Notes under the pieces: generated by a model
Database searches by the model: none
Told to the model about the DNA's origin: nothing
What the model saw: only the letters and a program-made list of their open reading frames with translations
Position numbers and translations under genes: made by a program
In this document: positions 4,823 through 45,037 of the stretch, piece by piece
Numbering within the stretch: position 1 is the stretch's first letter
How the letters are laid out: each line of letters opens with the position of its first letter
Assembly: GCF_028622115.1 (NCBI RefSeq)
Contig: NZ_CP097263.1
Coordinates: 10,055,501 to 10,119,500 of the forward strand
Reading direction: 5' to 3'
DNA length: 64,000 nt
From: Kutzneria chonburiensis
Lineage (GTDB): Bacteria; Actinomycetota; Actinomycetes; Mycobacteriales; Pseudonocardiaceae

Positions 4823-6889
4823 GTGGGCAACGCCGAGCTGGCTGCCGAACAAGACCATCTGACCGCCCTGTACGCGATGGTCGACGCCCGGCGGGAACGG
4901 GCGGCACACGGGATGAAGGCCGGCGACGAGGAGGCGAAGGCGTTCTGGGGCGAGGAACTGGGCCGCCTGGCGGCGGTGGAGGACGGACTCTGCTTCGGTC
5001 GGCTGGACATGCGTGACGGCCGACGGATCTACGTCGGACGGCTTGGCCTGTTCCGGGACGGTCAAGACGAACCGCTGCTGGTGGACTGGCGAGCGGCGGC
5101 GGCGCGGCCGTTCTACACGGCGACCATGGCGAAAGCGGACGGCGTGCGAAGGCGGCGGCGCATCACGACCCGGGGCCGGACGGTCACCGCAGTGGACGAC
5201 GAACTGCTGGACCGGGACGCCGCGAGCGACAGCGAGCTGGTCGGGGAGGCGGCGTTGATGGCGGCGCTGACGGCGGACCGAACCGGCCGGATGCACGACA
5301 TCGTGACCACGCTGCAAGCCGAGCAGGACGCGATCGTCCGGGACGACTACGCCGGCGTGCTGGTGGTGCAAGGCGGCCCGGGCACGGGCAAGACAGCGGT
5401 GGCGCTGCACCGGCTGGCCTACCTGCTCTACACCCGCGCCCACCTGCGTACCCGAGGTGTCCTGGTCATCGGCCCGAGCCGGGTCTTCCTGGACTACATC
5501 GGACAGGTGCTGCCGGGCCTGGGGGAGCAGGCGGTGGTGACGGCGACGATTGCTGGCCTGTACCCGGGAGTTCAGGTCAACGGCACGGGGCCGGCCGAGG
5601 ACAAAGGCCGGGCCGACATGGCCGACAAGATCGCGGCGGTGGTGCGCTCACGGGTACGCGTTCCCGAGGAGTCGCTGAAGGTGCACTTCGAACAGCAGGT
5701 GCTGAGGCTGGAATCCGACGACTGCCGCCGGGCCGTGGCGGCCGCCCGCCGCACGGGACTGCCGCACAACCAAGCGAGGCTGGTCTGCCACCAGCACGTG
5801 GTCGAACTGCTCGCGCAAGGCCTGGTCAACGGCATGGAGAACGTGGTGCTGACCGAGACCGGCGAAAGCCTGGACGGCGGCAGCGCCGACGGACGGCTCA
5901 GCGCAGCCGACCTGAGGGCGTTGGCGGCGGCCGGTGTCGTGCTCGATCCGGACCAGGACGACGGCCCGCGCCGCCTGGCCGACGAGATCGACCCGGCGCA
6001 GCTCCGCGCCGCGCTGCTGGCCGATCCCGGTGTCGCCGAAGTACTCGATGACCTGTGGCCAGCTTTGACCGCAGCAGAGGTGGTGGCCGAGATGCTCCCG
6101 GCCGGTGAATGGACGGCGGCGGACATTCCGTTGCTGGACGAGGCATCGGCGCTGATCGGCGAGTTCGACGGCACGACGTACGGGCACGTGGTGGTGGACG
6201 AGGCGCAGGAACTGTCGGCGATGGCCTGGCGGATGCTGATGCGCCGCTGTCCCACCAAGTCGATGACGGTCGTCGGCGACCTCGCCCAGACCAGCGACCT
6301 GGCCGGCGCAGTGTCCTGGGGCGACATGCTCCGGCCGCACGTGAGCGATCGCTGGCGGTTGGCCGAGCTCACCGTCAACTACCGCACCCCGACGGAGATC
6401 ATGGACGCCGCCGCCGACCTGTTCGCCGCACACCACGCGGACCGGCGGCCGCCACGCTCCGTCCGCTCGGCCGGCGAAGAGCCCTGGCGTCTGGAGTGCC
6501 GCCCGGCCGAGCTGCTTGACGTCGTCGCCGGCCTTGCCGCCCAACACACGCGCGGGCAGCTGGCGATCATCGCCAAGGCGCACCACCGCGAGATCACGGC
6601 GGCGTTGTCACTCCCAACGCCGGCCGATGTGACCGCACCGGTCGTGGTGCTGACGCCCGGCGAGGCCAAGGGACTGGAGTTCGACGCCGTGCTGATCGTC
6701 GACCCGGCCGGCATCCTCGCCGGTCCGCTGGGCCACAACGACCTGTACGTCGCGATGACCCGTGCCACCCAGCAGCTGGGCATCGTCCACCCGGGACCGC
6801 CGCCGGCCGAGCTGGCCCGCATCCACCAGATTCGAATGTCACATGCGCGCCATACTTGCCTCCCTGCGGCACGTCCGGACCGCATGTGA
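4823..6889 (+). CDS. helR: HelR/HelD-like RNA polymerase recycling helicase
   Basis: A 688-residue superfamily I (UvrD/Rep-like) ATPase. An N-terminal charged helical region (1-60, 'LAAEQDHLTALYAMVDARRERAAHGMK') is typical of HelD proteins, which insert it into RNA polymerase channels. Walker A GGPGTGKTA is near residue 184, the DE-box 'VVVDEAQELS' near 455 and 'VYVAMTRATQQL' near the C-terminus. Actinobacterial HelR proteins displace rifamycin from RNA polymerase and recycle stalled enzyme; resistance here is inference. GTG 4823 follows a GGGGGAAA site. I see no clear rifamycin-associated element upstream. The last 17 codons and the stop lie inside a 53-bp repeat element (6838-6890), so the C-terminal tail may be an insertion product. 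Confidence 0.85.
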   Translation: MGNAELAAEQDHLTALYAMVDARRERAAHGMKAGDEEAKAFWGEELGRLAAVEDGLCFGRLDMRDGRRIYVGRLGLFRDGQDEPLLVDWRAAAARPFYTATMAKADGVRRRRRITTRGRTVTAVDDELLDRDAASDSELVGEAALMAALTADRTGRMHDIVTTLQAEQDAIVRDDYAGVLVVQGGPGTGKTAVALHRLAYLLYTRAHLRTRGVLVIGPSRVFLDYIGQVLPGLGEQAVVTATIAGLYPGVQVNGTGPAEDKGRADMADKIAAVVRSRVRVPEESLKVHFEQQVLRLESDDCRRAVAAARRTGLPHNQARLVCHQHVVELLAQGLVNGMENVVLTETGESLDGGSADGRLSAADLRALAAAGVVLDPDQDDGPRRLADEIDPAQLRAALLADPGVAEVLDDLWPALTAAEVVAEMLPAGEWTAADIPLLDEASALIGEFDGTTYGHVVVDEAQELSAMAWRMLMRRCPTKSMTVVGDLAQTSDLAGAVSWGDMLRPHVSDRWRLAELTVNYRTPTEIMDAAADLFAAHHADRRPPRSVRSAGEEPWRLECRPAELLDVVAGLAAQHTRGQLAIIAKAHHREITAALSLPTPADVTAPVVVLTPGEAKGLEFDAVLIVDPAGILAGPLGHNDLYVAMTRATQQLGIVHPGPPPAELARIHQIRMSHARHTCLPAARPDRM

Positions 6890-6890
6890 C
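6838..6890. repeat. 53-bp palindromic element, copy 1 (subfamily B)
   Basis: Begins GTCACATGCG and ends CGCATGTGAC, with the asymmetric core ACTTGCCTCCC. It is 48/53 identical to the reverse complement of 35865-35917, and the flank ATTCGAAT is shared as well. It lies between convergent helR and the reductase gene and contains the helR stop codon. Confidence 0.85.
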
Positions 6891-6903
6891 AACGCGGGGG
6901 AGA

Positions 6904-7647
6904 TTAGCGGCGGGCGCGGTAGCGGAGCATGAGGAAGCTGTCGTCGGTGAGCACGGATTCCAGGTCCAGCTCGCGGGGCGACGCCGGCTGCGGCCCGACG
7001 GCGATGCGGCTGGCGTCGCCGCCGGCCAGCAGCGGTGAGACGGTGAGGCAGAGCTGGTCGACCAGACCGGCCTCGATGAGCCCACCGAACAGGTGCGGCC
7101 CGCCCTCGCAGCTGACCCGGCGCAGGCCCCGCTTGTCGAGCTCGGCCAGCGCCACCGACAGGTCCACGTCGTCGTCACCGGTCACGACGACATCGGCACC
7201 GGCGTCGGACAACTCCCGCAGACGGGAGGACGGGGCGGCAGCGCAGGTGAGGACGATGGTCGGGGCGACGGTCTCGGTGATCAGCGCCGAGTCGGGGGCG
7301 ACGGTGGCCCGCCGGGTGACCACGGCAATGGGTGGCACGGGGCTGAGCCCGAGCCGGGCCCGGACGGCCGCCCGCACCTCGCCGGACTTCACGCCGGCGT
7401 AGCCCTCGATGGCGGCGGTGCCGGCCCCGACCAGCACCACGTCGGCCAGGGTGCGGCCGAGCATGAAGACCTTCTTGTCGGCCGGCCCGGACAGGCCGTG
7501 CGACTTGCCGCCGACGGTGACGGCGCCGTCGGGGCTGGAGACGAAGTTCACCTGCACCCACGGCCGCGTCAGCGAGGACGGATAGTCGTAGAGCCGCTCG
7601 AGCTCGGTGTCGTCGATGTCACGGGCCTGGGGCAGGAGCATGCGCAC
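6904..7647 (-). CDS. RibD C-terminal-type pyrimidine reductase family protein
   Basis: A 247-residue NAD(P)H-dependent reductase of the RibD C-terminal / dihydrofolate-reductase-like fold. Family features are 'PWVQVNFVSSPDGAV' (about 29-43), 'DKKVFMLGRTLADVVLVGAGT', the phosphate loop 'VSCEGGPHLFGGLIEAGLVDQLCLTVSPLLAGG' (about 180-212) and a RYRAR end. No deaminase domain is attached, so this is a stand-alone reductase, either a riboflavin-pathway homologue or of unknown substrate. GTG 7647 starts the frame; ATG 7641 is an alternative. It is divergent from zapE with only a short shared promoter region, and its 3' end faces helR across a 53-bp element. Confidence 0.85.
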   Translation of the reverse strand: MRMLLPQARDIDDTELERLYDYPSSLTRPWVQVNFVSSPDGAVTVGGKSHGLSGPADKKVFMLGRTLADVVLVGAGTAAIEGYAGVKSGEVRAAVRARLGLSPVPPIAVVTRRATVAPDSALITETVAPTIVLTCAAAPSSRLRELSDAGADVVVTGDDDVDLSVALAELDKRGLRRVSCEGGPHLFGGLIEAGLVDQLCLTVSPLLAGGDASRIAVGPQPASPRELDLESVLTDDSFLMLRYRARR

Positions 7648-7680
7648 GGGTCAATCCCAACACGACACTACGATTCGCAC

Positions 7681-9225: not shown

Positions 9226-9238
9226 GACACAACTTCCT

Positions 9239-13558: not shown

Positions 13559-13566
13559 CCATTCGA

Positions 13567-13620
13567 CGCTTGGAAGGGGCCTTCCTCCACTCCGAGTGGA
13601 GGAAGGCCCCCTTCCAAGCG
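13567..13620. terminator. Large GGAAGGGGCC-type hairpin between convergent genes
   Basis: A 54-bp inverted repeat: arms 13567-13591 and 13595-13620 beginning CGCTTGGAAGG, perfect apart from one bulged G, with a 3-nt loop. It lies between the stops of the binding protein (13558) and the GH30 enzyme (13625). Related hairpins occur at 41457-41513 and 41514-41556. Probably a bidirectional terminator of a dispersed family. Confidence 0.75.
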
Positions 13621-13624
13621 TGAA

Positions 13625-17267: not shown

Positions 17268-17360
17268 GTTGCGTTTGACACCTGTTTGTTGCGCTGTTCG
17301 AGAATCTGACGGCGATTCGTTGCATGCAGGCTGTGTTGCGCAATATGCAACATCGGTTGC
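17268..17360. promoter_or_regulatory. Cluster of GTTGC half-sites upstream of rocD
   Basis: GTTGC occurs at 17268, 17288, 17319, 17335 and 17356. The fourth is part of GTTGCGCAATATGCAAC (17335-17351), a near-palindrome with TTGC/GCAA arms. The array lies in the rocD/lactonase divergent gap. TTGCGCAA-type repeats at about two-turn spacing suit Lrp/AsnC-family multimeric binding; the regulator identity is inference. Confidence 0.5.
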
Positions 17361-17434
17361 ACGCCTTGCCGACCGGCGATGGTCTAGGCCACAGTGGCGG
17401 CACGCCGCCGTTGCTTCGCCGAAAGGGGCGTGTG

Positions 17435-18601
17435 GTGCCTGATCTGGATCGTCGGCGGTTCCTGGGAGTGCTCGGGGCCGGGGTCGGAGGAGCGGTTCTG
17501 ATGAGCAGTGGCGTGGCCGAGGCCGGCCCGGTGTTCGGCCAGGTCGACAGCACGGCCGCCGCGACCCGGCCGTTGTTCATCGGCACGTACACCGACGGCA
17601 CGGGGGCCGGCAAGGGCATCGGCGTCGGCACGTGGGACGCCGCCAGCGGCCAGCTCACCGCCAAGTCCGTGGTCACCGTGGCCAATCCGTCGTTCCTCGC
17701 GCTCGCCCCGTCGCAGCGCTTCCTCTACGCCGTCGACGAGCAGGCCGGCGGCAAGGTCACCGCGCTGTCGGTGTCCAACGGCGGCCTGAAGGTCCTCAAC
17801 AGCCAGTCCAGCAAGGGCGATGGCCCGACGCACCTGTGCGTCACGCCGGACGGCAAGCACGTGCTGGCGGCCAACTACGACTCCGGCAGCGTCGTCGTGC
17901 TGCCGGTGAAGTCCGACGGCAGCCTCGGCGCGGCCACGGATCTGGCCCAGCACACCGGTTCCGGGCCCGACCCGGACCGGCAGGAGGGGCCCCACGCGCA
18001 CCAGGTGCTTCCGGACTGCACCGGCGCGTACGTGCACTCGGTCGACCTCGGCACCGACACCGTGTACGCCTACACGGTGTCCGGCGCCGGCAAGCTCAAG
18101 CTGGTGCACCAGGCCAAGGTGCCGGCCGGGCAGGGCCCGCGGCACCTGGTGTTCCACCCCAACGGCCGGTACGTCTACATCGCCAATGAGCTCGGCAACT
18201 CGGTGATCGTGGCGGCCTACGACCCGGCCACCGGCGTGCTCACCCCGGGCAAGCCGCAGACCACGCTGACCGCCCCGCCCAAGGCCGGCGTGCGCAACTA
18301 CCCCGGCGAGATCATCATTTCGGCCGACGGCCGGTTCGTGTACCTGTCCAACCGCGGCGCCGACAACGCGGCCGTCTTCGCCGTCGGCGACAGCGGAGCA
18401 TCGCTCAAGTTGCTGGCCAACACGCCCGTCGGCAAGAACCCCCGGCACATCGGCCTCGACCCGACCGGCTCGTTCCTGTTCTCGTCCAACCAGGACTCGG
18501 CCACCGTCACCAGCTACCGCGTGGACAAAAGCACCGGCCTGCTCACCGCGACCGGCGCGCCGCTGAAGTCGCCGATGCCGGTGATGACCCTGCCGCTCTG
18601 A
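17435..18601 (+). CDS. Secreted lactonase-family beta-propeller protein
   Basis: A 388-residue exported protein of the 6-phosphogluconolactonase/muconate-lactonizing seven-bladed propeller family (PF10282). The N-terminus is Tat-like: 'DLDRRRFLGVLGAGVGGAVL'. Repeated blade motifs include 'NPSFLALAPSQRFLYAVDE', 'GPTHLCVTPDGKHVLAANY', 'GPRHLVFHPNGRYVYIANEL' and 'NPRHIGLDPTGSFLFSSNQ'. GTG 17435 lies 6 bases after AAAGGGG; GTG 17432 is adjacent. Because it is exported, a true cytosolic 6-phosphogluconolactonase role is unlikely; it may act on other lactones. Followed by a 53-bp hairpin element. Confidence 0.85.
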   Translation: MPDLDRRRFLGVLGAGVGGAVLMSSGVAEAGPVFGQVDSTAAATRPLFIGTYTDGTGAGKGIGVGTWDAASGQLTAKSVVTVANPSFLALAPSQRFLYAVDEQAGGKVTALSVSNGGLKVLNSQSSKGDGPTHLCVTPDGKHVLAANYDSGSVVVLPVKSDGSLGAATDLAQHTGSGPDPDRQEGPHAHQVLPDCTGAYVHSVDLGTDTVYAYTVSGAGKLKLVHQAKVPAGQGPRHLVFHPNGRYVYIANELGNSVIVAAYDPATGVLTPGKPQTTLTAPPKAGVRNYPGEIIISADGRFVYLSNRGADNAAVFAVGDSGASLKLLANTPVGKNPRHIGLDPTGSFLFSSNQDSATVTSYRVDKSTGLLTATGAPLKSPMPVMTLPL

Positions 18602-18615: not shown

Positions 18616-18668
18616 GCCACATGCGCTTCTCATGTGTCACCAGATGACACATGAGAAGCGCATGTGGC
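18616..18668. repeat. 53-bp palindromic element, copy 2 (subfamily A)
   Basis: Two perfect 24-bp arms (starting GCCACATGCGCTTC) around a 5-nt CCAGA loop. It starts 15 bases after the lactonase stop. Compared with copy 3 at 19772-19824 it differs at four bases, arranged as two compensatory pairs that keep the stem intact. Confidence 0.9.
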
Positions 18669-18740
18669 TTTTCGGTTCCGCCGGCGCGCACCTGCGGCTG
18701 TGCCTGCCCGTCCAGGGGCCTGCCCCTCTAGGGTTGGCCC

Positions 18741-18992
18741 ATGCCGGAGATGTTGACCGTCGACCTGCATCCCGTGTTCCGCAGCGACCGGGACATCGAC
18801 GCCGCCGTGCGTACCGCGGTCTTCCGCGCGGCCCGGGAGCGGATCAAGGTTGTGGAGATCATCCACGGCAAGGGCGCCGGCAAGCTCCGCAAGCGCGTGC
18901 TGGCCATGCTGAACCAGCCGCAGATCCGCAAGCTCTACCGGCGCCTCGAGTTCGACCCGGCCAACGACGGCCGGGTCCTCGTCCACTTCTGA
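18741..18992 (+). CDS. Smr domain protein
   Basis: An 83-residue stand-alone Smr (MutS2 C-terminal-like) domain: 'LTVDLHPVFRSDRDIDAAVRTAVFRAARERIKVVEIIHGKGAGKLRKRVLAML', with the conserved D-LH and the H-G-K-G-x-G-K-L loop. Smr domains are nucleic-acid nickases or RNA endonucleases in ribosome rescue and repair; a single-domain protein like this is poorly characterised. ATG 18741. Upstream it is separated from the lactonase by a 53-bp hairpin; downstream it is convergent with the DUF4097 gene, leaving only 7 bases between the stops. Confidence 0.87.
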   Translation: MPEMLTVDLHPVFRSDRDIDAAVRTAVFRAARERIKVVEIIHGKGAGKLRKRVLAMLNQPQIRKLYRRLEFDPANDGRVLVHF

Positions 18993-18999
18993 CCCGGTC

Positions 19000-19662
19000 T
19001 CAGAGGCTGTGGGCGACGATGTCGCCCTGGTTGGTGGTGGCGTGGATGTCGAGCTCGACGGTGCCGTTGTTGGTCAGCGCGTTGCTGATCCGGCCGAGGG
19101 TGGTGCCGGCGTCCAGCCGCGCCGACACGCCGGCTGCGGCGCCGATCGAGATGCCGCCCGCCTGGGTACGCAGCACCACCGTGCCGCCAACCGCCTCGGC
19201 GACCCGGATGTCACCGCGTGCGGTGCTGATCTCGGCCGGACCGGCCAGCCGACCGACCGCCACGTCGCCGTCCACCGCGGTCAGCCGCAGGCCGGCGGCC
19301 TCGTCGATGTGGATCTGGCTGTAGGCGCCGTCGAAGTCGACCTCGCCGAGGCGGCCCGTGGTGTGCAGCTCGGCGCTGCCGGCCGTGGCCCGCACCCTGG
19401 AGTCGGCCGGCAGATGCACCGTGACCTCCAGGGAACCGGTCGGGCCGAAGTACTGACCCTTGGCATCGGCGTGGATGCGCAGGACCCCGTCGGCGTACTC
19501 CACCGTGGTCTGCTGCGCGGCTTTGACGTCACGGGGCCGGGTGGCGTCGGCCGGCTGCACGTCGACCGTCGTGTCGGCCCGGTCGGCGGCGACGAACCGC
19601 ACGCGGCCGGCCGGGATCTCCAGGACGGTGGTGATCGGGGCGGGGGTGGCGAAGGTGGGCAT
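19000..19662 (-). CDS. DUF4097 family beta-strand repeat protein
   Basis: A 220-residue protein with repeated short beta-strand motifs typical of DUF4097/DUF4098 proteins: 'GSLEVTVHLPADSRVRATAGSAELHTTGRLGEVDFDGAYSQIHIDEAAGLRLTAVDGDVAVGRLAGPAEISTARGDIRVAEA', ending 'ALTNNGTVELDIHATTNQGDIVAHSL'. No signal peptide is seen, so it appears cytoplasmic or a scaffold. ATG 19662 follows AGGAGCCCGAG. Function is unknown. It is downstream of, and separated by a 53-bp hairpin from, the DHFR-like gene on the same strand. Confidence 0.82.
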   Translation of the reverse strand: MPTFATPAPITTVLEIPAGRVRFVAADRADTTVDVQPADATRPRDVKAAQQTTVEYADGVLRIHADAKGQYFGPTGSLEVTVHLPADSRVRATAGSAELHTTGRLGEVDFDGAYSQIHIDEAAGLRLTAVDGDVAVGRLAGPAEISTARGDIRVAEAVGGTVVLRTQAGGISIGAAAGVSARLDAGTTLGRISNALTNNGTVELDIHATTNQGDIVAHSL

Positions 19663-19771
19663 CTCGGGCTCCTGACCAGTGGTGTTCCCTGCTGACGGAA
19701 ACCACCTTCGCCGGCCCCGCTGACAGCGAACCGCCGCCGGCCTGACACCACCCCTGACACCCCGCCGTGCT

Positions 19772-19824
19772 GCCACATGCGCTTCCTATGTGTCACCAGA
19801 TGACACATAGGAAGCGCATGTGGC
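19772..19824. repeat. 53-bp palindromic element, copy 3 (subfamily A)
   Basis: Perfect 24-bp arms (GCCACATGCGCTTCC...) and a CCAGA loop. It abuts the stop codon of the DHFR-like gene (stop at 19825-19827 on the minus strand) with no spacer. Confidence 0.9.
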
Positions 19825-20400
19825 TCAGCGGACCACGTCGTAGATGAGCTTCTGGATGCCGTTGCCGTAGGACTGGCTGTCGACCAGCTTGAGGCCCTGC
19901 TTGTCCTTGTCGGTCGCGCTGAACAGGCGCTTGCCCGCGCCGAGCAGAACCGGGAAGACCAGCAGGTGGTAGCGGTCGATCAGGCCGGCGTCGGACAGGT
20001 TGCGGTTGAGCGTCGCGCTGCCGTGCACGATCACCGGGCCGCCGTCGGTCTCCTTGAGCGCGGCCACGTCGTCCAGCGACCGCAGGATGGTCGTGTCGCC
20101 CCAGTTGTCGACCAGGTCCTGGTCCTTCAGCGTCGTGGACACGACGTACTTCGGCATCGCGTTGTAGCCCGGGAACTCGTCGGTCATGCCCGGCCACACC
20201 GGCGCGAACGCCTGGTAGCTGACCCGCCCGAGCAACATCGCCGCGGCTTCCTCCTGCTCACGGCCCTTGAGCTCGTAGGCCGCGGGGTCGAACTCGATGC
20301 CCTGGAACGTCCAGCCCGCGTTGCGGTAGCCGTCCTCGCCGCCCGGGGCCTCGACGACGCCGTCCAGCGAGACGAACGCGGTGGTGATCAGGGTGCGCAT
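19825..20400 (-). CDS. Dihydrofolate reductase family (RibD C-terminal-like) protein
   Basis: A 191-residue protein of the DHFR-like/RibD C-terminal group (YwjB/YyaP type). Motifs are 'LITTAFVSLDGVVEAPGGEDG' at the N-terminus, 'AAAMLLGRVSYQAFAPVWPG', 'YVVSTTLKDQDLVDN', 'GGPVIVHGSATLNRNLSDAGLIDRYHLLVFPVLLGAGKRLF' and 'YGNGIQKLIYDVV'. Such proteins are widespread putative NADPH-dependent reductases whose substrate is usually unknown; true DHFR is unlikely. ATG 20400 follows a GAGGAGC-like site. It is probably monocistronic, ending in the 53-bp hairpin. Confidence 0.88.
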   Translation of the reverse strand: MRTLITTAFVSLDGVVEAPGGEDGYRNAGWTFQGIEFDPAAYELKGREQEEAAAMLLGRVSYQAFAPVWPGMTDEFPGYNAMPKYVVSTTLKDQDLVDNWGDTTILRSLDDVAALKETDGGPVIVHGSATLNRNLSDAGLIDRYHLLVFPVLLGAGKRLFSATDKDKQGLKLVDSQSYGNGIQKLIYDVVR

Positions 20401-20476
20401 GGGGTGCTCCTCGGTTGGGCCGTACCTGCATTCAACCCTGCGTCGAACGGCACCCGCCGATATCGACACGCGGGTT

Positions 20477-21100
20477 TCAGAAGGCGGTGGCGACCCGGTC
20501 GGCGCGTTCCCGCCGGGACAGGGCCCGCAGCACGGGCAGCTGGCCCCGCTTGGCGACGGCGATGCGGGCCAGGGTGGTGACGGCGGCATCGACGACGTCC
20601 GGGTCGAACTCCGGCGTGGGCACGCCGAGGCTCACGGCGAGGTCGTCGGTGTGCACGACGAGCTCGATGATCCGGGTGGTCAGGCACTGGTCGAGCGGCA
20701 GCACCCAGCGGTTGAACATCAGCACGAGCCGGTCCCCGGCCAGGCCTTCGAGCCGAGCGGCGACGGTCCGCACGGTGTCGTCGTACCGGTCGGCGAGCTC
20801 GGCGGCGGACCGGCCGGCCTGCTCCTCGCCGAGCACCCGGATGCGGGTGTTGTTCTCGGAGTGGACATCGACCTCGCCGCCGTGCTGCGCGTAGTAGTGG
20901 ACGGCGTCCATCACCGGGGCGTCGGCGGGCACGGGGACGTCGAGGAAGCGGGTGACGTTGGCCTGCCCGGCGAGGTGCCCGGCCAGCCCGGAGACGCGGA
21001 ACTCGGCCAGCGCCGACGGCTTGGTCCACGACTCGGCGAGTTCGGGGGAGCGGAGCAGCACGCCGGCCGTGCGGGCGGCGGAGAGGAAGGCCGAGATCAC
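20477..21100 (-). CDS. MDMPI/DinB-fold mycothiol-dependent maleylpyruvate isomerase family protein
   Basis: A 207-residue four-helix-bundle protein of the MDMPI_N group. N-terminal 'SAFLSAARTAGVLLRSPELAESWTKPSALAEFRVSGLAGHLAGQ' carries the metal-site His, and the second half has 'LTTRIIELVVHTDDLAVSLG', the typical third metal ligand segment. These enzymes use mycothiol or act as unknown metal-dependent transferases. GTG 21100 overlaps the stop of the MetF-like gene as GTGA, indicating translational coupling. It is the last gene of a five-gene operon running 25375 to 20477. Confidence 0.82.
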   Translation of the reverse strand: MISAFLSAARTAGVLLRSPELAESWTKPSALAEFRVSGLAGHLAGQANVTRFLDVPVPADAPVMDAVHYYAQHGGEVDVHSENNTRIRVLGEEQAGRSAAELADRYDDTVRTVAARLEGLAGDRLVLMFNRWVLPLDQCLTTRIIELVVHTDDLAVSLGVPTPEFDPDVVDAAVTTLARIAVAKRGQLPVLRALSRRERADRVATAF

Positions 21101-34129: not shown

Positions 34130-34694
34130 CTCCGCTGTGCGGGCACGGTTCCACCGCTGCCCGCCGGTGCCGACCGATGAGGCGGACCCCGTGAGAAGAC
34201 AGCGTCGGCTGCGGGCCATCGCCGCCCGGTACGCGACGGCCGGCCCGTTCTCCGTTGACGCCCTGTGCCGGGTGATCTCGGCCCAACGCGGCCGCCCGCT
34301 GCACGTGCACCCGCTCAACGTGCCGCCGTCGGCCGGGCTCAACGCCTGCGGCATGTGGATCGCCACCGACGTGGCCGACCACGTCTTCGTCGAGCACCGG
34401 ACCAGCCGGTTCCACCAGGAGCACATCATCCTGCACGAGATCGGCCACATGCTGTGCGATCACGTGACGGAGGACCTGCCGTCGGCGCTGACCGACGCCC
34501 TGCGCGCGGGCGAGGTCGACACCGGGCTGGTGCGCCAGGTGCTGGCCCGTACCAGCTACACGACCGGCCAGGAGCAGGACGCCGAGCTGGTGGCCAGCCT
34601 GATCCTGGAGCGGGTGGCCCGACGGCACGCCCGCGCGCTCGACGACGCGGACAGCCGGCTCGGCACGATTCTGGGGATCAACGACGGTGACTGA
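34122..34694 (+). CDS. ImmA/IrrE-type zinc metallopeptidase
   Basis: A 190-residue protein with the HExxH zinc motif (H105-E106-H109 in 'IILHEIGHMLCDH') preceded by 'GMWIATDVADHVFVEHRTSRFHQEH', characteristic of ImmA/IrrE-family peptidases (PF06114-like). ImmA and IrrE proteases cleave Xre-type repressors in response to stress, and the Xre gene directly upstream is the obvious substrate candidate. ATG 34122 lies within the end of the Xre gene (8-base overlap), and its own end overlaps the membrane-protein start by 8 bases with a nearly identical sequence (GTGACTGA). Confidence 0.9.
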   Translation: MTDSAVRARFHRCPPVPTDEADPVRRQRRLRAIAARYATAGPFSVDALCRVISAQRGRPLHVHPLNVPPSAGLNACGMWIATDVADHVFVEHRTSRFHQEHIILHEIGHMLCDHVTEDLPSALTDALRAGEVDTGLVRQVLARTSYTTGQEQDAELVASLILERVARRHARALDDADSRLGTILGINDGD

Positions 34695-35853
34695 CCTGAT
34701 TCAGACGGTCCTGCTCTACGTGTGCTGGATCGTGGTGATCGTGCGGGTCACGGCGCTGCGCTCACGCAACCAGCGGCCGCTGTGGTTCGCGCTGCTGATG
34801 TTGGCGCTGGGCATCACCATGCTGCAGAAGGACACCAACGCCTTCATTCGCGGCATCACCGGCGACGCGAACTTCCAGTACCTCGTCTCCAGCGTCATGG
34901 CCGTCGGAGTCGCGGCCACGCTGCTGACCTTCGCCGCCCGCGCGGCCGAAGTGTGGATCTCCCCGTGGCTGCGCTGGATCTCCTGCGGCATAACGGTATT
35001 CGTGATGATCACGTCCTATGTGGTCTTCACGGCCGGCGGCGGCCAGGCCCGGCCGCACTTCTTCCCGGTGCCCGGCACACTGTCCATTCTGGATCTGTAC
35101 TGGGTCGTCTACCTTGTGTACCAAGGCATTGCCACGGTGGCCACGCTGGTGTTGCTGATCAAAGCCTTCGGCCGGGTCCGGTCTTGGCTGGTCCGCACGC
35201 CGGTGCTGCTGCTGATCATCGGCTCGGTCGGCTTCACCGTGTTCATCGGCAGCCGTTTCGTGGCGGTGTTCGGCGGCGTCGAATCGGCCGTCGCGTTCGG
35301 CACGTACGTCTCGTCCCCGCACACCATCGGCGTCTCGCTGGGCTGCTCGATCGCCGCCTTCGTGCCGCTGGTGCTGGGCTGGTCGGCCTGGCGCAACGCC
35401 AATGCCCTGTACCCGCTGTGGAAATCCCTCGTCACGGCCGTGCCGCACATCGCCCTGTACCCGCCGCGCGCCCGCCTCGTCGACGCGCTTTTACCGCAGA
35501 ACAGTCAACTCCGCCTGCACCGCCGCCTGGTCGAGATCCGGGACGGCATGCTGATCATGAACGACTGGGTGCAGCCGGCCGACCTCGCCCAGATCGAGGT
35601 CTTCGTCTCCGACGTGCCGCCGGACCTGATGACGCCGATCACCACCGCTTGCTGGCTCAAGGTCGCCATCGCCGTGCACGCCGCCGGTGTGCCCATGGCG
35701 ACCGACCCGCTCGACCTCGTCCGCGAAGGCGGCACCGACGGCGAGTCCGAGCTGAACTGGCTCCGTTCCGTGGCCGCGGTGTGGACCGACGCCCGCACCG
35801 ACCGTTTCGCCACCACCGTCAGCGAGACCCGCCTGGCCGCCCACCGCCCGTGA
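34687..35853 (+). CDS. MAB_1171c-type seven-helix membrane protein
   Basis: A 388-residue membrane protein with about seven hydrophobic helices in the first ~235 residues (for example 'IQTVLLYVCWIVVIVRVTAL', 'WFALLMLALGITML', 'TVATLVLLIKAFG', 'TPVLLLIIGSVGFTVFIG' and 'CSIAAFVPLVLGW'). A cytoplasmic C-terminal domain of ~150 residues follows ('RLHRRLVEIRDGMLIMNDWVQPADLAQIEVF'). It matches the actinobacterial 'MAB_1171c family putative transporter' type, which commonly sits after Xre and ImmA/IrrE genes. The topology resembles a 7TM sensor more than a transporter; the role is unknown. GTG 34687, 8-base overlap with the peptidase gene. Confidence 0.85.
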   Translation: MTDLIQTVLLYVCWIVVIVRVTALRSRNQRPLWFALLMLALGITMLQKDTNAFIRGITGDANFQYLVSSVMAVGVAATLLTFAARAAEVWISPWLRWISCGITVFVMITSYVVFTAGGGQARPHFFPVPGTLSILDLYWVVYLVYQGIATVATLVLLIKAFGRVRSWLVRTPVLLLIIGSVGFTVFIGSRFVAVFGGVESAVAFGTYVSSPHTIGVSLGCSIAAFVPLVLGWSAWRNANALYPLWKSLVTAVPHIALYPPRARLVDALLPQNSQLRLHRRLVEIRDGMLIMNDWVQPADLAQIEVFVSDVPPDLMTPITTACWLKVAIAVHAAGVPMATDPLDLVREGGTDGESELNWLRSVAAVWTDARTDRFATTVSETRLAAHRP

Positions 35854-35864: not shown

Positions 35865-35917
35865 GGCACATGCGGTCCGGATGTGCCTCTGGGAGGCAAG
35901 TATGACGCGCATGTGAC
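35865..35917. repeat. 53-bp palindromic element, copy 4 (subfamily B)
   Basis: Begins GGCACATGCGGTCC and ends CGCATGTGAC, followed by the shared flank ATTCGAAT. Its reverse complement matches 6838-6890 at 48 of 53 positions. It lies between the convergent membrane-protein (35853) and PucR (35939) stops. Confidence 0.85.
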
Positions 35918-35938: not shown

Positions 35939-37552
35939 TCAGGTGGAGAGGTCCATGGCCAGCAGGGCGACGTAGAGGGACAGCATGGACTCGGGATCCT
36001 CAAGGGAGACACCGAGAACGGTCTCGATGCGGGACAGCTGCTGGTAGTAGGCGGTGCGGGACATGTGCGCGGCGGCGGCCGCGGCGGACTTGTTGCCGCC
36101 GTGCTCGCAGAAGACGCGGAGCAGGTCGACGAGACGGCTGCCCTGGGCGGTGTCGCGGGCGAGCAGCGGCCCGAGTTCCCGTGCGGCGAAGGCGGACAGG
36201 CGCTCGTCCTCACGGAGCAGGTGCAGCAGACCGCGCAGGCGAACGTCGTCGAGGCGGTGGTAGCTGCGGGCACCGGGGGAGCGCAGGGCGGCGTTGGCCA
36301 CGTGGGCGGCCTCGATCATGCTGCGACGGCCGTCGGGGATGGAGCGCACGGTGGTGCCGACGCCGACGACCACGGGGATCGCCGTGGGAGAACTCCTGAT
36401 CTGGGAAGCAAGTCGCCGCAGTGAAGCGTCCACATTGGACTGGGGTGGCAGCGAGATCAGGGCCCGTACGGAAATGTCGTCGACGCCGCCGACCAGTGCC
36501 GGGATCTTGGTCCGACGGGCGGCGGAGGCGGTGGCCTCGGCCAGGTCGCGCAAGGCCTCCTGGGTGGCCGACGGCGTGGTCTCGGGGCGGATGGCCATGC
36601 CGATGAGTTGCCGTCCCTCCAACGGAACCCCGAGCGCGCCGGCCCGCGTGGCGAGATCGACCGGCGGCGCGCCGGTGGCCAGCAGCTCGGTCAACAGCGT
36701 GCGATGGGTGTGCCGCTCCAGGCTCTCCCGGTCCCGCGCGACGAGCCGGTTCACGGCCAGCGCGGACGCGGCCCGCTCGGCCACCACGACCAGCCGGTGC
36801 ACCGGCTCGTCCGGGCTGACCAGCACCAACCGGCCCCAGTCGTTGCCACGGGCGCCGACGATCGTCACGAGCCAGCCGGCGCCCGGGTGGTAGGCGGTGC
36901 GCTCGGCCACGGTGACCGCGCGTGACCGCTCGGCCCAGCCGGCCAGCAGCTCGGCCACCTCGCCGCCGGCCGGGTCGTAGGCCAGCACGTCGTGACCGAG
37001 GGTCTCCAGCACCACCGGCGCGCCGGTCATCCGCGCCACCTCGCGCAGCACCTCGGACGGCTCGGCCCCGGACACCGTCAGCGCCGTGAAGGTCTCGTGC
37101 ACCTGCTCGGCCGCCCGCAGCTCGGCCAGCTGGGCGTCCACGATCATCGCCACCACCGCCTCGGTGATGGCCACGAACCGGACCTCCTGGGCCAGCGTGA
37201 TCACGGGCAGTGATCGCCGCTCGGCCGCCTCCAGCAGCGCCGCCGGCAGCGCGTCGGTCCAGCGTCGGACCAGCTCGAACACCACACCGCTGGCCCCGGC
37301 GTCGGCCAGGCCGTCGATGTAGGCGGTGAGCTCGGCCGGGTCGTCACGCAGCGCGATGCCGGTGGTCAGCACCAGCTCGCCGCCACGCAGCAGCGGCCCG
37401 ATGTCGGCCACCTCGGCCACGTGCACCCAGCGCACCCGGCCGTCCAGCCCGGCCGAGCCGGCGGCCAGCCGGGGCCGGCCGCGCCGGATCAGCGGCATGG
37501 TCAGCACGTCCGACACGGACGGGAACACCGAGCTCTTGGCCAGCTTGGACAC
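35939..37552 (-). CDS. PucR family transcriptional activator
   Basis: A 537-residue regulator: N-terminal PucR domain (about 15-135, 'PSVSDVLTMPLIRRGRPRLAAGSAGLDGRVRWVHVAEVADIGPLLRGGELVLTTG'), a central GAF/CdaR-like region and a C-terminal helix-turn-helix, 'LVDLLRVFCEHGGNKSAAAAAAHMSRTAYYQQLSRIETVLGVSLEDP' (about 475-520). PucR proteins control purine, pyrimidine and related nitrogen catabolism. It lies between the two halves of the pyrimidine-catabolic island and is divergent from the aminotransferase-dehydrogenase pair, so it probably activates both. GTG 37552; weak ribosome site. Confidence 0.92.
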   Translation of the reverse strand: MSKLAKSSVFPSVSDVLTMPLIRRGRPRLAAGSAGLDGRVRWVHVAEVADIGPLLRGGELVLTTGIALRDDPAELTAYIDGLADAGASGVVFELVRRWTDALPAALLEAAERRSLPVITLAQEVRFVAITEAVVAMIVDAQLAELRAAEQVHETFTALTVSGAEPSEVLREVARMTGAPVVLETLGHDVLAYDPAGGEVAELLAGWAERSRAVTVAERTAYHPGAGWLVTIVGARGNDWGRLVLVSPDEPVHRLVVVAERAASALAVNRLVARDRESLERHTHRTLLTELLATGAPPVDLATRAGALGVPLEGRQLIGMAIRPETTPSATQEALRDLAEATASAARRTKIPALVGGVDDISVRALISLPPQSNVDASLRRLASQIRSSPTAIPVVVGVGTTVRSIPDGRRSMIEAAHVANAALRSPGARSYHRLDDVRLRGLLHLLREDERLSAFAARELGPLLARDTAQGSRLVDLLRVFCEHGGNKSAAAAAAHMSRTAYYQQLSRIETVLGVSLEDPESMLSLYVALLAMDLST

Positions 37553-40561: not shown

Positions 40562-40616
40562 TAACTGAACAACGTCACCACCAACCGCCGCCGCCCCTGC
40601 ACTCCCGGAGGTTGAT

Positions 40617-41453: not shown

Positions 41454-41456
41454 GCA

Positions 41457-41513: not shown

Positions 41514-41556
41514 GAACGGACCATTCCTCTACTCGGAGTTTGGGAATGGTCCGTTC
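41514..41556. repeat. Second tandem hairpin after the chitosanase
   Basis: GAACGGACCATTCC (41514-41527) pairs perfectly with GGAATGGTCCGTTC (41543-41556), 14 bp with a 15-nt loop. It is directly adjacent to the preceding hairpin and of the same general style, but has a different sequence. Confidence 0.7.
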
Positions 41557-41582
41557 ACCGCGTTCGGGGCTTGACGGCACGC

Positions 41583-41623
41583 TTCGGTAAGTCGTAGCTT
41601 ACGGTTCGTGGCGACTTACCGAA
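41583..41623. promoter_or_regulatory. Long inverted repeat spanning the ArsR start codon
   Basis: TTCGGTAAGTCG (41583-41594) is exactly inverted at 41612-41623 (CGACTTACCGAA). The GTG start of the ArsR gene (41608) lies between the arms, and the second arm is inside the coding region. Probably the ArsR protein's own operator, with near-leaderless transcription. Confidence 0.65.
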
Positions 41624-41928: not shown

Positions 41929-42383
41929 GCGTGGTCAAGACAGTCACCGTCAAGGCCGGTCAACCGCACGCGTTCAAGGTCTTCACCGCCGGGTTCGCCA
42001 CCTGGTGGCCGTCATCGCACCACATCGGCAAGGCCGACATGGCCGAGGCGATCATGGAGCAGCGCGACGGCGGCCGCTGGTACGAGCGCGGCGTGGACGG
42101 CAGTGAATGCGACTGGGGCACCGTGCTGGTCTACGACCCGCCCAACCGTGTGGTGCTCAGCTGGCACCTCAACGGCGAATGGGCCTACGACCCCGATCCG
42201 GCCAAGGCCAGCGAGGTCGAGGTGCGGTTCATCGCCGAAGGCCCGGACGTGACGCGGGTCGAACTGGAGCACCGGCACTTCGAGCGGCACGGCGGCAACT
42301 GGGAGGCCGTGGCCCGCGGCGTCGACACCGAGAACGGCTGGGCGGGGCTGCTGCGGGGGTACGCCGATATCGCGGCGGCGTGA
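41925..42383 (+). CDS. SRPBCC (AHSA1-like) domain protein
   Basis: A 152-residue START-like protein: 'AFKVFTAGFATWWPSSHHIGKADMAEAIMEQRDGGRWYERGVDGSECDWGTVLVYDPPNRVVLSWHLNGEWAYDPDPAKASEVEVRF' with the C-terminal helix 'GWAGLLRGYADIAAA'. Such proteins bind small hydrophobic ligands. In ArsR-SRPBCC pairs the regulator controls the ligand-binding partner; the ligand is unknown. ATG 41925, translationally coupled to the ArsR gene. Confidence 0.9.
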   Translation: MSVVKTVTVKAGQPHAFKVFTAGFATWWPSSHHIGKADMAEAIMEQRDGGRWYERGVDGSECDWGTVLVYDPPNRVVLSWHLNGEWAYDPDPAKASEVEVRFIAEGPDVTRVELEHRHFERHGGNWEAVARGVDTENGWAGLLRGYADIAAA

Positions 42384-42413
42384 CCAGGGGCGGGCCGGAT
42401 AGGGTCATCGCTC

Positions 42414-44483
42414 GTGACTGCTGAACTGTCCTTTCCCCGCCAGCAAGCCCGCACCCAGCGCTTCTCGTTGGGTGTGCCCAGGGCGTTCACCGTCGCACCG
42501 GACGGATCCCGGGTGCTGTTCCTCCGCTCCGCGTCGGGCACCGACCGTCGCACCGGCCTGTGGAGCCTGGACGTCGAGACGGGGCAGGAGGCCCCGCTGT
42601 TCGACCCCTTCTCCGACAGCGAGGAGCTGTCGCCCGAGGAGCGGGCCCGCCGTGAGCGCAGCCGCGAGTCGGCCGCCGGTGTCGTCGGCTACGCCACCGA
42701 CTCGGCGCTGACCGTGGCGGCGTTCGCGCTGTCCGGCAAGGTGCACGTGACCGACCTGGCCGCCGGCACCACGGCCGAGCTGGCCACGCCCGGGCCGGTG
42801 ATCGATCCCCGGCCCGACCCCACCGGCCGCCACGTCGCGTACGCCGTGGTGGCCGGCGAGCTGCGGGTCGTCGGCGTGGACGGCACCGGTGACCGGGCGC
42901 TGGCCGAGCCCGACGGCGACGAGGTGACGTGGGGCGTCGCCGAGTTCATCGCCGCCGAGGAGATGGACCGGTTCCGGGGCTACTGGTGGGCGCCGGACGG
43001 CGAGCGGTTGCTGGCCGCTCGCGTGGACAACTCGCCCGTGCAGCGCTGGCACATCGCCGACCCGGCCAACCCCGGCACGGTGCCGGCCGAGATCGCCTAC
43101 CCGGCCGCCGGCACCGACAACGCCGACGTCAGCCTGGCCGTGCTCGGCCTCGACGGCTCGCGGGTCGACGTGCAGTGGGACCGGGCCGCGTTCCCGTACC
43201 TGGCCACCGCGCACTGGTCGGCCGGCGGCGCGCCGCTGCTGCTCGTGCAGTCGCGTGACCAGCGGACGCAGCGGATTCTCACCGTGGACCCGGACACCGG
43301 TTCGACGGCCGTGCTGCACGAGGAGAGCGACCCTCAGTGGGTCGACATCATGCCCGGCGTGCCGGCGTGGACCCGCGACGGCCGCCTGGTCCGGATCGCC
43401 GCCGTGGACGGTGCTTGGCGCCTCGTCGTGGGCGATGACGTGCTGACTCCCGTCGGCTTGCAAGTACGCTCCGTGACTTCAGTGACGAATGAAGACGTAC
43501 TGGTCCGGGCGTCCGAGGGCGACCCCACGCAGATCCACACCTATCGGGTCCGCAAGGACGGCGTCGAACGGTTGTCCGTTGCCGACGGCGTGCATGCCGT
43601 CGTGCGGGGCGGCGAGGTCACCGTGCGGCTCAGCACCGGTCTTGGCTTCTTCGGCACCGTCACCGAGATCTTCCGTGGTTCCGACCGCGTTGGCTCGGTG
43701 AAGTCGCTCGCCGCCACACCGTCCATCACGCCCAACGTTCAGATGTTGGAGCTGGGGGAGCGCGGCCTTCGCGGCGCCCTGCTGCTACCCACCGGTTACG
43801 CCGACGGGCCGCTGCCCGTGCTGCTCGACCCGTACGGCGGGCCGCATGCGCAGCGTGTCGTTCAGACGCGGAACGCTTTCACCGCTTCGCAGTGGCTCGC
43901 CGACCAGGGCTTCGCCGTGCTCGTCGTGGACGGCCGGGGCACTCCCGGCCGTGGTCCCGGGTGGGAGCGGGCCATCCACCTCGACTTCGCCGGCGCCACC
44001 CTCGACGACCAGGTCGACGCCTTGCACGCCGCCGCCGCCCAGTTCCCCTTCTTGGACCTTTCTCGCGTCGCCATCCGGGGTTGGTCTTACGGCGGCTACC
44101 TCTCGGCGTTGGCGGTCCTGCGCCGCCCCGACGTCTTCCGGGCCGGCATCGCCGGCGCTCCCGTCACCGATTGGCGGCTCTACGACACCCACTACACCGA
44201 GCGCTACCTGGGCAACCCCTTGGAGCGGCCCGAGGTGTACGACGCCAATTCCCTCATCGACGACGCCCCCAAGCTCAGCCAGGACCTGATGATCATCCAC
44301 GGCCTGGCCGACGACAACGTCGTCGCCGCCCACACCCTGCGCCTCAGCTCCGCCCTGTTGGCCGCCGGCCGTCCGCACACCGTGCTGCCCCTGTCCGGCG
44401 TCACCCACATGACCCCCCAGGAGCAGGTAGCCGAGAACCTCCTGCTGCTCCAGGTCGACTTCTTGAAGCGCTCCCTCGGCTGA
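42414..44483 (+). CDS. S9 family prolyl oligopeptidase (dipeptidyl-peptidase IV-like)
   Basis: A 689-residue serine peptidase with an N-terminal DPP-IV beta-propeller domain ('DRFRGYWWAPDGERLLAARVDNSPVQRWHIADP', about 185-215) and a C-terminal catalytic domain (about 450-689). The catalytic Ser is in 'VAIRGWSYGGYLSALAVL' (about 556), Asp in 'IIHGLADDNVVAAH' (about 631) and His in 'LSGVTHMTPQEQV' (about 663). No signal peptide is seen, so it is cytoplasmic, probably degrading proline-containing oligopeptides. GTG 42414. It ends next to a 53-bp hairpin. Confidence 0.92.
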   Translation: MTAELSFPRQQARTQRFSLGVPRAFTVAPDGSRVLFLRSASGTDRRTGLWSLDVETGQEAPLFDPFSDSEELSPEERARRERSRESAAGVVGYATDSALTVAAFALSGKVHVTDLAAGTTAELATPGPVIDPRPDPTGRHVAYAVVAGELRVVGVDGTGDRALAEPDGDEVTWGVAEFIAAEEMDRFRGYWWAPDGERLLAARVDNSPVQRWHIADPANPGTVPAEIAYPAAGTDNADVSLAVLGLDGSRVDVQWDRAAFPYLATAHWSAGGAPLLLVQSRDQRTQRILTVDPDTGSTAVLHEESDPQWVDIMPGVPAWTRDGRLVRIAAVDGAWRLVVGDDVLTPVGLQVRSVTSVTNEDVLVRASEGDPTQIHTYRVRKDGVERLSVADGVHAVVRGGEVTVRLSTGLGFFGTVTEIFRGSDRVGSVKSLAATPSITPNVQMLELGERGLRGALLLPTGYADGPLPVLLDPYGGPHAQRVVQTRNAFTASQWLADQGFAVLVVDGRGTPGRGPGWERAIHLDFAGATLDDQVDALHAAAAQFPFLDLSRVAIRGWSYGGYLSALAVLRRPDVFRAGIAGAPVTDWRLYDTHYTERYLGNPLERPEVYDANSLIDDAPKLSQDLMIIHGLADDNVVAAHTLRLSSALLAAGRPHTVLPLSGVTHMTPQEQVAENLLLLQVDFLKRSLG

Positions 44484-44490
44484 CGTTTCT

Positions 44491-44543
44491 GCCACCTGCG
44501 CTTCCTATGTGGCGTCTGACGCCACATAGGAAGCGCGTGTGGC
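44491..44543. repeat. 53-bp palindromic element, copy 5 (subfamily A)
   Basis: 26-bp arms starting GCCACCTGCGCTTCC with two mismatches and a 1-nt centre. It lies between the convergent stops of the S9 peptidase (44483) and the DUF4333 gene (44555). It shares CTTCCTATGTG with copy 3. Confidence 0.88.
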
Positions 44544-44554
44544 GAACCAACGTC

Positions 44555-44932
44555 TCACTGTGGCTGGCCGACCTCGTAGTGGCCATCGTCCGATTTCACG
44601 GTGATCAGAACACTCTTGTGCGCGCCGTCCACGGTCACCTGGCAGGTGAAGGCGAGGCCCAGATGCACCGGTTGGTTCGAGGGGCAGTGCACGTCATAGG
44701 CCTTGAGTTTGTAGTCGTTGTTCAGGACATCTGAGATACCGATCTCCATCTTGCCTTCGTCGAAGATCTTGATCGGCGACGGCGTCCTGCCGATCAAGGG
44801 GGCCGGCGTGGCGGGTGCGGTGTGGTCACGAACAAGGACAACAGTGATGATCACTATGCAGCCGGCGATGACCATGGCGCAGATCGACACGATTGCGGCG
44901 ACGGCGCTGGACGGCCGGGGCGGAGTGGACAC
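44555..44932 (-). CDS. DUF4333 domain membrane-anchored protein
   Basis: A 125-residue protein with one N-terminal transmembrane helix (about 10-34, 'VAAIVSICAMVIAGCIVIITVVLV') and an extracytoplasmic DUF4333 domain: 'MEIGISDVLNNDYKLKAYDVHCPSNQPVHLGLAFTCQVTVDGAHKSVLITVKSDDGHYEV', with the two conserved cysteines. The function of DUF4333 is unknown; it is common on actinobacterial envelopes. GTG 44932; no obvious ribosome site, so it may be leaderless. Confidence 0.85.
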   Translation of the reverse strand: MSTPPRPSSAVAAIVSICAMVIAGCIVIITVVLVRDHTAPATPAPLIGRTPSPIKIFDEGKMEIGISDVLNNDYKLKAYDVHCPSNQPVHLGLAFTCQVTVDGAHKSVLITVKSDDGHYEVGQPQ

Positions 44933-44984
44933 AGCACATCAGTCTGGCGAGGACCGGCCTGCGTTACGTTCACCTGGGCGACCT

Positions 44985-45037
44985 GCCACATGAGCTTCCT
45001 GCTTGCATTTGGGCGGCAAGTAGGAAGCTCATGTGGC
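44985..45037. repeat. 53-bp palindromic element, copy 6 (subfamily B-like)
   Basis: Outer arms GCCACATGAGCTTCCT / AGGAAGCTCATGTGGC are perfect and a weaker inner stem is CTTGC/GCAAG. The reverse strand carries ACTTGCCGCCC, close to the ACTTGCCTCCC core of copies 1 and 4. The right arm overlaps the stop codon (45029-45031) of the minus-strand gene. Confidence 0.85.

What the first reader, a model, noticed from the sequence alone, without database searches (positions are those of the whole stretch)
6838..45037. Family of six 53-bp hairpin elements, all at gene 3' ends
Copies lie at 6838-6890, 18616-18668, 19772-19824, 35865-35917, 44491-44543 and 44985-45037. Every one is exactly 53 bp with near-complementary ends (GCCACATG/CATGTGGC or GTCACATG/CATGTGAC types). 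Two subfamilies are visible: near-perfect hairpins (three copies) and copies with an asymmetric ACTTGCC(T/G)CCC core (three copies). Differences between copies 2 and 3 are two compensatory pairs. All six touch or nearly touch the 3' end of at least one gene; three lie in convergent gaps. Fixed length suggests a mobilised unit or a selected structural element; terminators or mRNA 3' stabilisers are the simplest roles.
Basis: partly seen in the sequence, partly recalled or inferred. Interest (0 to 1): 0.78.

Follow-up and report, generated by a model that had tools for sequence, protein, structure and literature searches.

The report
Length-locked 53-bp palindromes at gene ends
This soil bacterium carries about 150 copies of a palindrome that is nearly always exactly 53 letters long and sits just behind genes, and a sister species has a differently spelled palindrome of the same length in the same kind of place, which suggests that shape and length may matter more than the letters.

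Summary
Confirmed. The six copies are real, exactly 53 bp, and belong to a large family in a Kutzneria genome: 147 two-end matches against 4 in the control. In 2.06 Mb fetched, 131 perfect-end pairs have this length and 4 any other (30-80 nt). 108 of 126 intergenic copies lie within 60 bp of a called gene 3' end (random 25%). Anatomy: two 23-bp arms, 7-bp centre. Symmetric copies (B) show compensatory change, asymmetric ones (A) none. Of 38 elements examined in relatives, 23 map to the sample and 20 meet an own element at the same place; A was amplified here (68 places against 0-5). Of 16 relative slots (four gene ends, four relatives), 5 hold a 53-mer type, 6 another palindrome, 5 none clear. 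A sister species has 104 copies of a different palindrome, 53 bp in all 14 copies held. No Y1 transposase, target duplication or Rfam match. Best reading: gene-end hairpins (U-tract-less termination or 3'-end protection) built to a fixed ruler; function is inferred, without RNA data.

The parts
6838..6890 (+). 53-bp element, type A (asymmetric); carries the stop codon of the + ORF 4823-6889 and lies 13 bp from the 3' end of the RibD_C gene 6904-7647 (-); convergent
   Evidence: a type B element stands at the same gene end in G003
18616..18668 (.). 53-bp element, type B (symmetric, 25 of 26 positions paired), 14 bp behind the lactonase-like gene 17324-18601 (+)
   Evidence: 53-mer at the same gene end in G002 and G003, a decayed 55-bp one in G001, another 115-bp inverted repeat in G006
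19772..19824 (.). 53-bp element, type B, adjacent to the stop codon of the RibD_C gene 19825-20589 (-); differs from the copy at 18616 by two compensated pairs
   Evidence: in G002 one element stands where this genome has two with 1103 bp between them
35865..35917 (-). 53-bp element, type A, 11 bp behind the DUF6545 gene 34687-35853 (+), convergent with the PucR-type regulator 35939-37552 (-)
   Evidence: a different palindrome (family C, 93 bp between its GCGAGTC boxes) at this gene end in G002
44491..44543 (.). 53-bp element, type B, with mutated ends (CACCTG/CGTGTG), 7 bp behind the S9 peptidase gene 42414-44483 (+)
   Evidence: 53-mer in G002; family C palindromes of 86, 83 and 108 bp at this gene end in G003, G006 and G001
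44985..45037 (.). 53-bp element, type B with an imperfect middle; carries the stop codon of the - ORF 45029-45586

Best explanation
The elements are gene-end hairpins: a genus-level family of 53-bp repeats (23-bp arm, 7-bp centre, 23-bp arm) that lie a few bases behind stop codons and act in the transcript as strong 3' stem-loops, ending transcription from either side without a U-tract or protecting mRNA 3' ends. Copies were spread in the past (type A recently, in this species) and many are then kept in place; other palindrome families can take over the same gene-end slot. SHOWN: family, fixed length, gene-end position, base-pair compensation in type B, shared placement between species, lineage-specific amplification of A, other palindromes in some orthologous slots. 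INFERRED: that the RNA hairpin is the active form, that it terminates or protects, that selection keeps it, and that an unidentified protein or enzyme sets the 53-bp ruler.
For: Position: of 131 copies, 58 convergent, 57 tandem, 11 divergent, 5 inside called genes; 108 of the 126 intergenic ones are within 60 bp of a called 3' end, random placement in gaps 25%; in tandem gaps 52 of 57 are nearer the upstream 3' end. Occupied gaps of 53 bp or more, in a sample chosen for elements: 54 of 151 convergent, 55 of 520 tandem, 9 of 299 divergent. Structure: 61 unique B and other symmetric copies have 1364 of 1586 Watson-Crick cells against 1274.8 shuffled, z 7.0 to 8.4 at pairs 11-43, 12-42, 13-41 and 15-39; 46 aligned copies, 11 of 23 pairs with change on both sides, 98 such cells against 47.7, 0 of 500 shuffles. 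Median fold energy B -43 and A -25 against -13.8 and -12.6 for shuffles. Shared placement: 20 of 23 mappable elements of relatives (38 examined) meet an own element within 200 bp, 17 distinct own elements. Slots: of 16 (gene ends of copies 1, 2, 4, 5 in G001, G002, G003, G006), 5 hold a 53-mer type and 6 another long inverted repeat; a differently spelled 53-bp palindrome sits at gene ends in G005. This fits a structural role. A lies 18 to 18 in either orientation to tandem genes. Streptomyces terminators from Term-seq are the longest and most stable hairpins, with few Us (PMC12207403, passages).
Against: No RNA data. Type A, half the family, shows no covariation (1044 of 1560 against 1043.7) and mostly unpaired positions at 11-12, 16, 18 and 19; in B the innermost pairs 23-31 to 25-29 do not covary either. 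T-richness behind the hairpin is rare (19 of 262 strand-sides) and before it commoner (64 of 262), the reverse of an intrinsic terminator. A bare hairpin needs no exact length. In Kutzneria sp. 744 two elements (L042 6744, L029 3598) have arms in direct orientation with the 7-bp spacing kept, and single and triple arms exist, which fits DNA binding better. 5 of the 16 slots show no clear long inverted repeat. The higher identity of elements at shared places (46.75 of 53 over 16 pairs, against 43.9 for other pairs) is a weak sign of constraint, because any two B copies are already 83% alike, and gapped flanks are also more alike than random (0.64 against 0.44).
Confidence: 0.5

Rival explanations
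1. DNA-level binding element: each 23-bp arm is a dyad (GnCAnnT-N9-AnnTGnC) for a protein dimer, and two dimers 30 bp apart (about three helical turns) act between converging genes, for instance as a nucleoid, supercoil-handling or roadblock site, like REP/BIME elements that bind gyrase (recalled).
For: Spacer 9 inside the dyad is unique: 107 strict matches at 9, 0 at the other spacers from 3 to 24. Constraint that pairing does not ask for, such as the conserved unpaired middle of A and C26/G28 in B. Modular arms: a triple arm 23-7-23-7-23, direct-oriented arms, single arms. Six doublets 71-89 bp apart against 0.2 expected. Ends CACATG/CATGTG nearly invariant: an interior-only scan found 2 further copies beside 125 of 131 known, in a sample chosen by perfect ends.
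Against: Some relatives carry palindromes without these motifs at the same gene ends, and G005 uses other letters, which a sequence-specific protein would not tolerate without co-evolution. B arms covary. No protein identified.
Confidence: 0.25
2. Selfish REP/MITE-like repeats without host function, moved by an unknown enzyme that prefers gene 3' ends.
For: About 150 copies; places of the A pattern: 68 here, 5 in G002, 2 in G003, 0 in G001, G005 and G006; A copies inside longer family C palindromes; doublets; the A copy in L136 has no counterpart in G002.
Against: No Y1_Tnp PF01797 match in the genome (other transposase families were not searched), no target duplication, no match in viral contigs to one 21-base motif nor in plasmids to one 53-bp query; 20 of 23 mappable placements shared between species.
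Confidence: 0.17
3. Recombination sites: the 7-bp centre is the overlap of a tyrosine recombinase and genes between two elements are cassettes, like attC or dif sites.
For: Centres vary at fixed length (20 distinct in 67 A, 42 in 55 B); copies 2 and 3 share the centre ACCAGAT and enclose 1103 bp that is missing in G002, where one element stands.
Against: Only this one presence/absence case was checked; many elements stand in conserved synteny, not in arrays. No recombinase was sought.
Confidence: 0.05

Closest known systems
REP / BIME elements (GTAG and CGTC REPs, RAYT-associated)
   Same: Dispersed palindromic extragenic repeats in high copy, some in dimers (PMC3733652, start of abstract and passages); gene 3'-end placement of REPs is recalled
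   Different: REPs are 20-40 bp with a tag at one end, stems of 5-13 bp and, for GTAG REPs, RAYT genes (same source); here 23-bp arms, 53 bp, CACATG ends and no Y1 transposase match
Intrinsic (Rho-independent) terminators of high-GC actinobacteria
   Same: Long stable hairpins behind stop codons with few Us; covariation reported for Streptomyces (PMC12207403, passages)
   Different: Terminators are not known to me as a fixed-length repeat family (recalled); here T-rich before and A-rich after the hairpin
DNA uptake sequence pairs used as terminators (Neisseria, Haemophilus)
   Same: A repeated motif in inverted pairs at gene ends (recalled; Kingsford 2007 seen only in a reference list)
   Different: Single units are nearly absent here: 2 strict single dyads outside the 53-mers in 2.06 Mb
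Integron attC sites
   Same: Imperfect palindromes at gene 3' ends with conserved outer boxes and asymmetric middles (recalled)
   Different: Constant length, dispersed and not in cassette arrays, different end motif

Membership tests
RAYT-mobilised REP/REPIN | A Y1/HUH REP-associated tyrosine transposase in the genome | tested here: not met
   PF01797: 0 matches in G000; rings in 5 of 14 control genomes
RAYT-mobilised REP/REPIN | GTAG or CGTC tag at one end of the stem | tested here: not met
   Ends are CACATG/CATGTG in 131 copies; tag definition from PMC3733652 (title and passages)
REP-like repeat (broad sense) | Many dispersed extragenic palindromic copies with gene 3'-end bias | tested here: met
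Intrinsic terminator | Stable stem-loop shortly behind stop codons | tested here: met
Intrinsic terminator | U-tract directly behind the stem | tested here: not met
   4 or more T in the 8 nt behind: 19 of 262 strand-sides; before: 64 of 262. In Streptomyces the tract is also weak (PMC12207403, passages)
Intrinsic terminator | Transcripts end there | not testable with these tools
   No RNA data held
Transposon-derived MITE | Target-site duplication | tested here: not met
   Exact flank repeats of 2-9 bp not above shuffled pairings (2 against 1.67 at 4 bp, otherwise at or below)
Known RNA family (Rfam 15) | Match at gathering score | tested here: not met
   0 matches in the window
attC / tyrosine-recombinase site | Cognate recombinase and recombination at the site | not tested
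   Only one presence/absence case seen

The most novel reading that the evidence does not exclude
Kutzneria genomes use a gene-end architecture locked in length, not in sequence: palindromes of 23-7-23 bp whose letters turn over between and within species (CACATG A and B, CACSTGAGTGG, GTCAGGAAGG and GCCATGAAAG types; also single 53-bp palindromes in two other genera) while 53 bp, the 7-bp centre and the gene-end slot stay. A cellular ruler (a dsRNA- or DNA-measuring protein, or a copying enzyme) would read geometry and let families replace one another in the same slots.
Probability: 0.35. Interest if true: 0.85.

Novelty: new variant of a known kind. Interest (0 to 1): 0.62.

Why it matters
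How transcripts end in high-GC actinobacteria, where U-tracts are scarce, is not settled (PMC12207403, passages). A family of natural gene-end hairpins with one fixed length, about 150 copies per genome, counterparts in sister species and differently spelled palindromes of the same length gives a ready experiment: the same slot with different letters. If length is the selected feature, it points to an unknown measuring factor at gene ends. It might also give two-way insulators for actinomycete expression work.

Tried and rejected
Chance or low-complexity matches: rejected. Resident RAYT: no PF01797 match; other transposase families not searched. Target-site duplications: none. Flanks extending the palindrome locus by locus: not above shuffled pairings (1092 against a mean of 1054.6, largest shuffle 1118), so the T-rich/A-rich flanks are composition only. 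Known RNA family: none in the window. Phage or plasmid carriage: one 21-base motif not in viral contigs, one 53-bp query without match in plasmids. GCACGAAG...CTTCGTGC (the type seen in G078) as a widespread fixed-length family: 37 of 200 genomes with 1-2 matches each, of many lengths and mostly not palindromic inside, so not supported. Palindrome families D and F also sit at gene ends, but their unit length (57; 44-57) is not 53 unless the ends are cut by hand. Pair similarity as proof of cassette duplication: dropped, 49 of 53 for two close B pairs is not clearly above other B pairs.

Limits: 89 of the 100 own stretches were chosen round listed perfect-end copies and the other 11 at arbitrary places without listed copies, so occupancy and end conservation are not genome-wide. 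Elements of relatives (38) come from the places that the searches listed and from a B-type motif scan, so they lean to B. 131 of about 147 own copies were held. Genes were called by a home-made codon-model caller. The 3 of 23 mappable relatives' elements without an own element nearby are L038 6049, L039 6592 and L040 704.

Literature: searches (listings seen) showed no description of these repeats. The Kutzneria albida genome paper (PMC4210621) was seen in passages only: 'palindrom' does not occur in its main text. Of PMC6060812 the abstract and outline were seen, of PMC13155455 passages.
Full report
WHAT WAS CLAIMED AND WHAT IS THERE. The six copies stand at the stated coordinates and each is 53 bp. 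The pattern CACATG-N25..55-CATGTG occurs 5 times in the window against 0.11 expected and 147 times in the whole genome, against 4 for the reversed control. 50 of the 147 places were listed there: 49 have the same 49-nt core (53 bp with two more bases per side) and one is a 60-nt chance hit. The genome is one contig of 10.41 Mb.

LENGTH. I fetched 100 stretches of the genome (1.996 Mb, plus the window), 89 round listed copies and 11 at arbitrary places without listed copies. Of perfect-end pairs 30-80 nt long, 131 have length 49; the others are one of 36, one of 53 and two of 79. A scan with interior profiles that ignores the ends, at fixed length, found 127 places: 125 of the 131 and two more, one being the copy at 44491. 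A covariance model allows gaps: over 1.98 Mb of own sequence its CACATG matches are 53 long, and it also finds a CACSTGAGTGGCTCA type, 53 long in most cases; the exceptions are one of 54 (L132), one of 55 on one strand (L068), partial matches of 39-45 and a single 23-bp arm (L108). Exceptions in relatives: 55 bp at copy 2's slot in G001 and 52 in L170, one of 54 in G003 and one of 55 in G006. The 122 A and B copies carry 633 substitutions from their consensus.

ANATOMY. Two 23-bp arms flank a 7-bp centre. Each arm is roughly a dyad GnCAnnT-N9-AnnTGnC: strict dyads occur 107 times at spacer 9 and never at other spacers from 3 to 24. Type A (67 of 131) keeps an unpaired middle; B (55) is symmetric; 9 are other symmetric variants. 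B and the others show strong compensatory change (1364 of 1586 Watson-Crick cells against 1274.8 shuffled), though not at the innermost pairs; A shows none (1044 of 1560 against 1043.7). On 46 aligned copies 11 of 23 pairs change on both sides, 98 cells against 47.7, 0 of 500 shuffles. L062 9359-9441 has three arms at the same 7-bp spacing, L042 6744 and L029 3598 (Kutzneria sp. 744) have arms in direct orientation, and L108 18761 and L022 2586 are single arms. Six pairs of elements stand 71-89 bp apart (0.2 expected).

PLACE. With a home-made gene caller, 58 copies are in convergent, 57 in tandem and 11 in divergent gaps and 5 inside called genes. Of the 126 intergenic ones, 115 have a neighbouring 3' end and 108 are within 60 bp of it (25% for random placement); in tandem gaps 52 of 57 are nearer the upstream 3' end. 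Occupied gaps of 53 bp or more: 54 of 151 convergent, 55 of 520 tandem, 9 of 299 divergent, in a sample chosen for elements. In the 11 stretches without listed copies, some long inverted repeat is present in 7 of 12 convergent, 7 of 76 tandem and 1 of 29 divergent gaps of 20 bp or more; 2 of 300 coding segments have one. A copies lie 18 to 18 in either orientation to tandem genes. Five called genes end inside or at the edge of an element.

RELATIVES. The strict motif was found in 5 of 60 genomes searched, all of this genus (own 125, G002 44, G001 40, G003 12, G006 5; 0 in G004 and G005). The model matched 8 of 200 genomes of the family: five of this genus, two of genus g4 and one of g8; the three loci read from the other genera are 53-bp palindromes with other letters (L193, L194, L195). 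Of 38 distinct elements in relatives, 23 have flanks in the own sample and 20 of these meet an own element within 200 bp of the predicted place, 17 distinct own elements. Since the sample was chosen round own elements, 20 of 38 is the safer figure. In 3 of the 20 the relative has B where this genome has A. Sixteen B-B pairs (14 own elements) average 46.75 of 53 identical against 43.9 for other pairs (resampling P 0.0002); the next 20+20 flanking bases average 17.6 of 40 without gaps and 30+30 bases 0.64 with gaps against 0.44 for random pairs. So many placements are old. Because any two B copies are 83% alike, this does not by itself prove constraint. Against pure retention, the A pattern has 68 places here, 5 in G002, 2 in G003 and 0 in G001, G005 and G006 (one of the 68 and one of the 2 are symmetric), a lineage-specific spread, and the copy in L136 has no counterpart in G002.

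SLOTS. For copies 1, 2, 4 and 5 in four relatives (16 slots), 5 hold a 53-mer type (copy 1: G003; copy 2: G002, G003 and, decayed, G001; copy 5: G002), 6 another long inverted repeat (copy 1: G006; copy 2: G006; copy 4: G002; copy 5: G003, G006 and G001), and 5 none that is clear (copy 1: G002, G001; copy 4: G003, G006 and G001, the last with only a 180-bp match that spans most of the stretch). Four of the six replacements are of the GCGAGTCnCGCT type. Copies 2 and 3 with their 1103 bp between correspond to a single element in G002.

THE LENGTH RECURS. G005, without strict CACATGCG copies, has 104 copies of CATGAAAGTG...CACTTTCATG; the 13 places listed are all 49 nt, i.e. 53 with the flanking two bases per side, and so are all 14 distinct copies held, under a pattern that allowed 36-66. 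In 128 kb of it 10 of 11 copies are within 23 bp of a called 3' end. GTCAGGAAGG...CCTTCCTGAC is found 7 times here, 24 times in G002 and twice in G005 (19 of these 33 places listed, all 53 bp) and in none of the other 197 genomes of that search. The G005 palindrome and the GTCAGGAAGG one share GTGCCGTTC in G005, so those two may be related to each other. Families D and F at gene ends do not reduce cleanly to 53.

WORKING MODEL. A structural gene-end device fits best: slot and palindrome persist while letters change. A U-tract is absent, but Streptomyces terminators from Term-seq are also long, stable and U-poor (PMC12207403, passages). What a plain hairpin does not explain is the exact length, the conserved unpaired middle of type A and the direct-arm variants; these favour a measuring or binding protein. 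There is no RNA or protein evidence here.

Noticed in passing
window 13566-13621: A 56-bp palindrome of another repeat family (GGAAGGGGCCTTCCTCCACTCSGAG type) in a convergent gap; related copies at gene ends elsewhere in the genome.
   Followed up: partly
window 59088-59204: A 117-bp palindrome of the GCGAGTCnCGCT (family C) type between called genes; the same family stands in place of 53-mers in relatives.
   Followed up: partly
L052 8386, L078 7212: 53-bp type A elements nested inside longer family C palindromes, giving concentric inverted repeats.
   Followed up: partly
window 18616-19824: A 1.1-kb segment with a DUF4097-like gene, bounded by two nearly identical 53-mers, that is missing in G002, where one 53-mer stands.
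   Followed up: partly
window 61415-63387: A 300-bp stretch repeated at 89% identity 1.6 kb apart, with five shorter repeats of 94 bp.
   Followed up: no
L098 1396, L099 13627, L106 11731, L111 5402: Another palindrome family outside called genes, 74-77 bp, with TTGCYRGATTTTTCGAGGYCCGC at one end.
   Followed up: no
L193 1501-1553, L194 1501-1553, L195 1501-1553: 53-bp palindromes with other letters in genomes of two other genera (G149; G078 and G109), found by the covariance model.
   Followed up: partly
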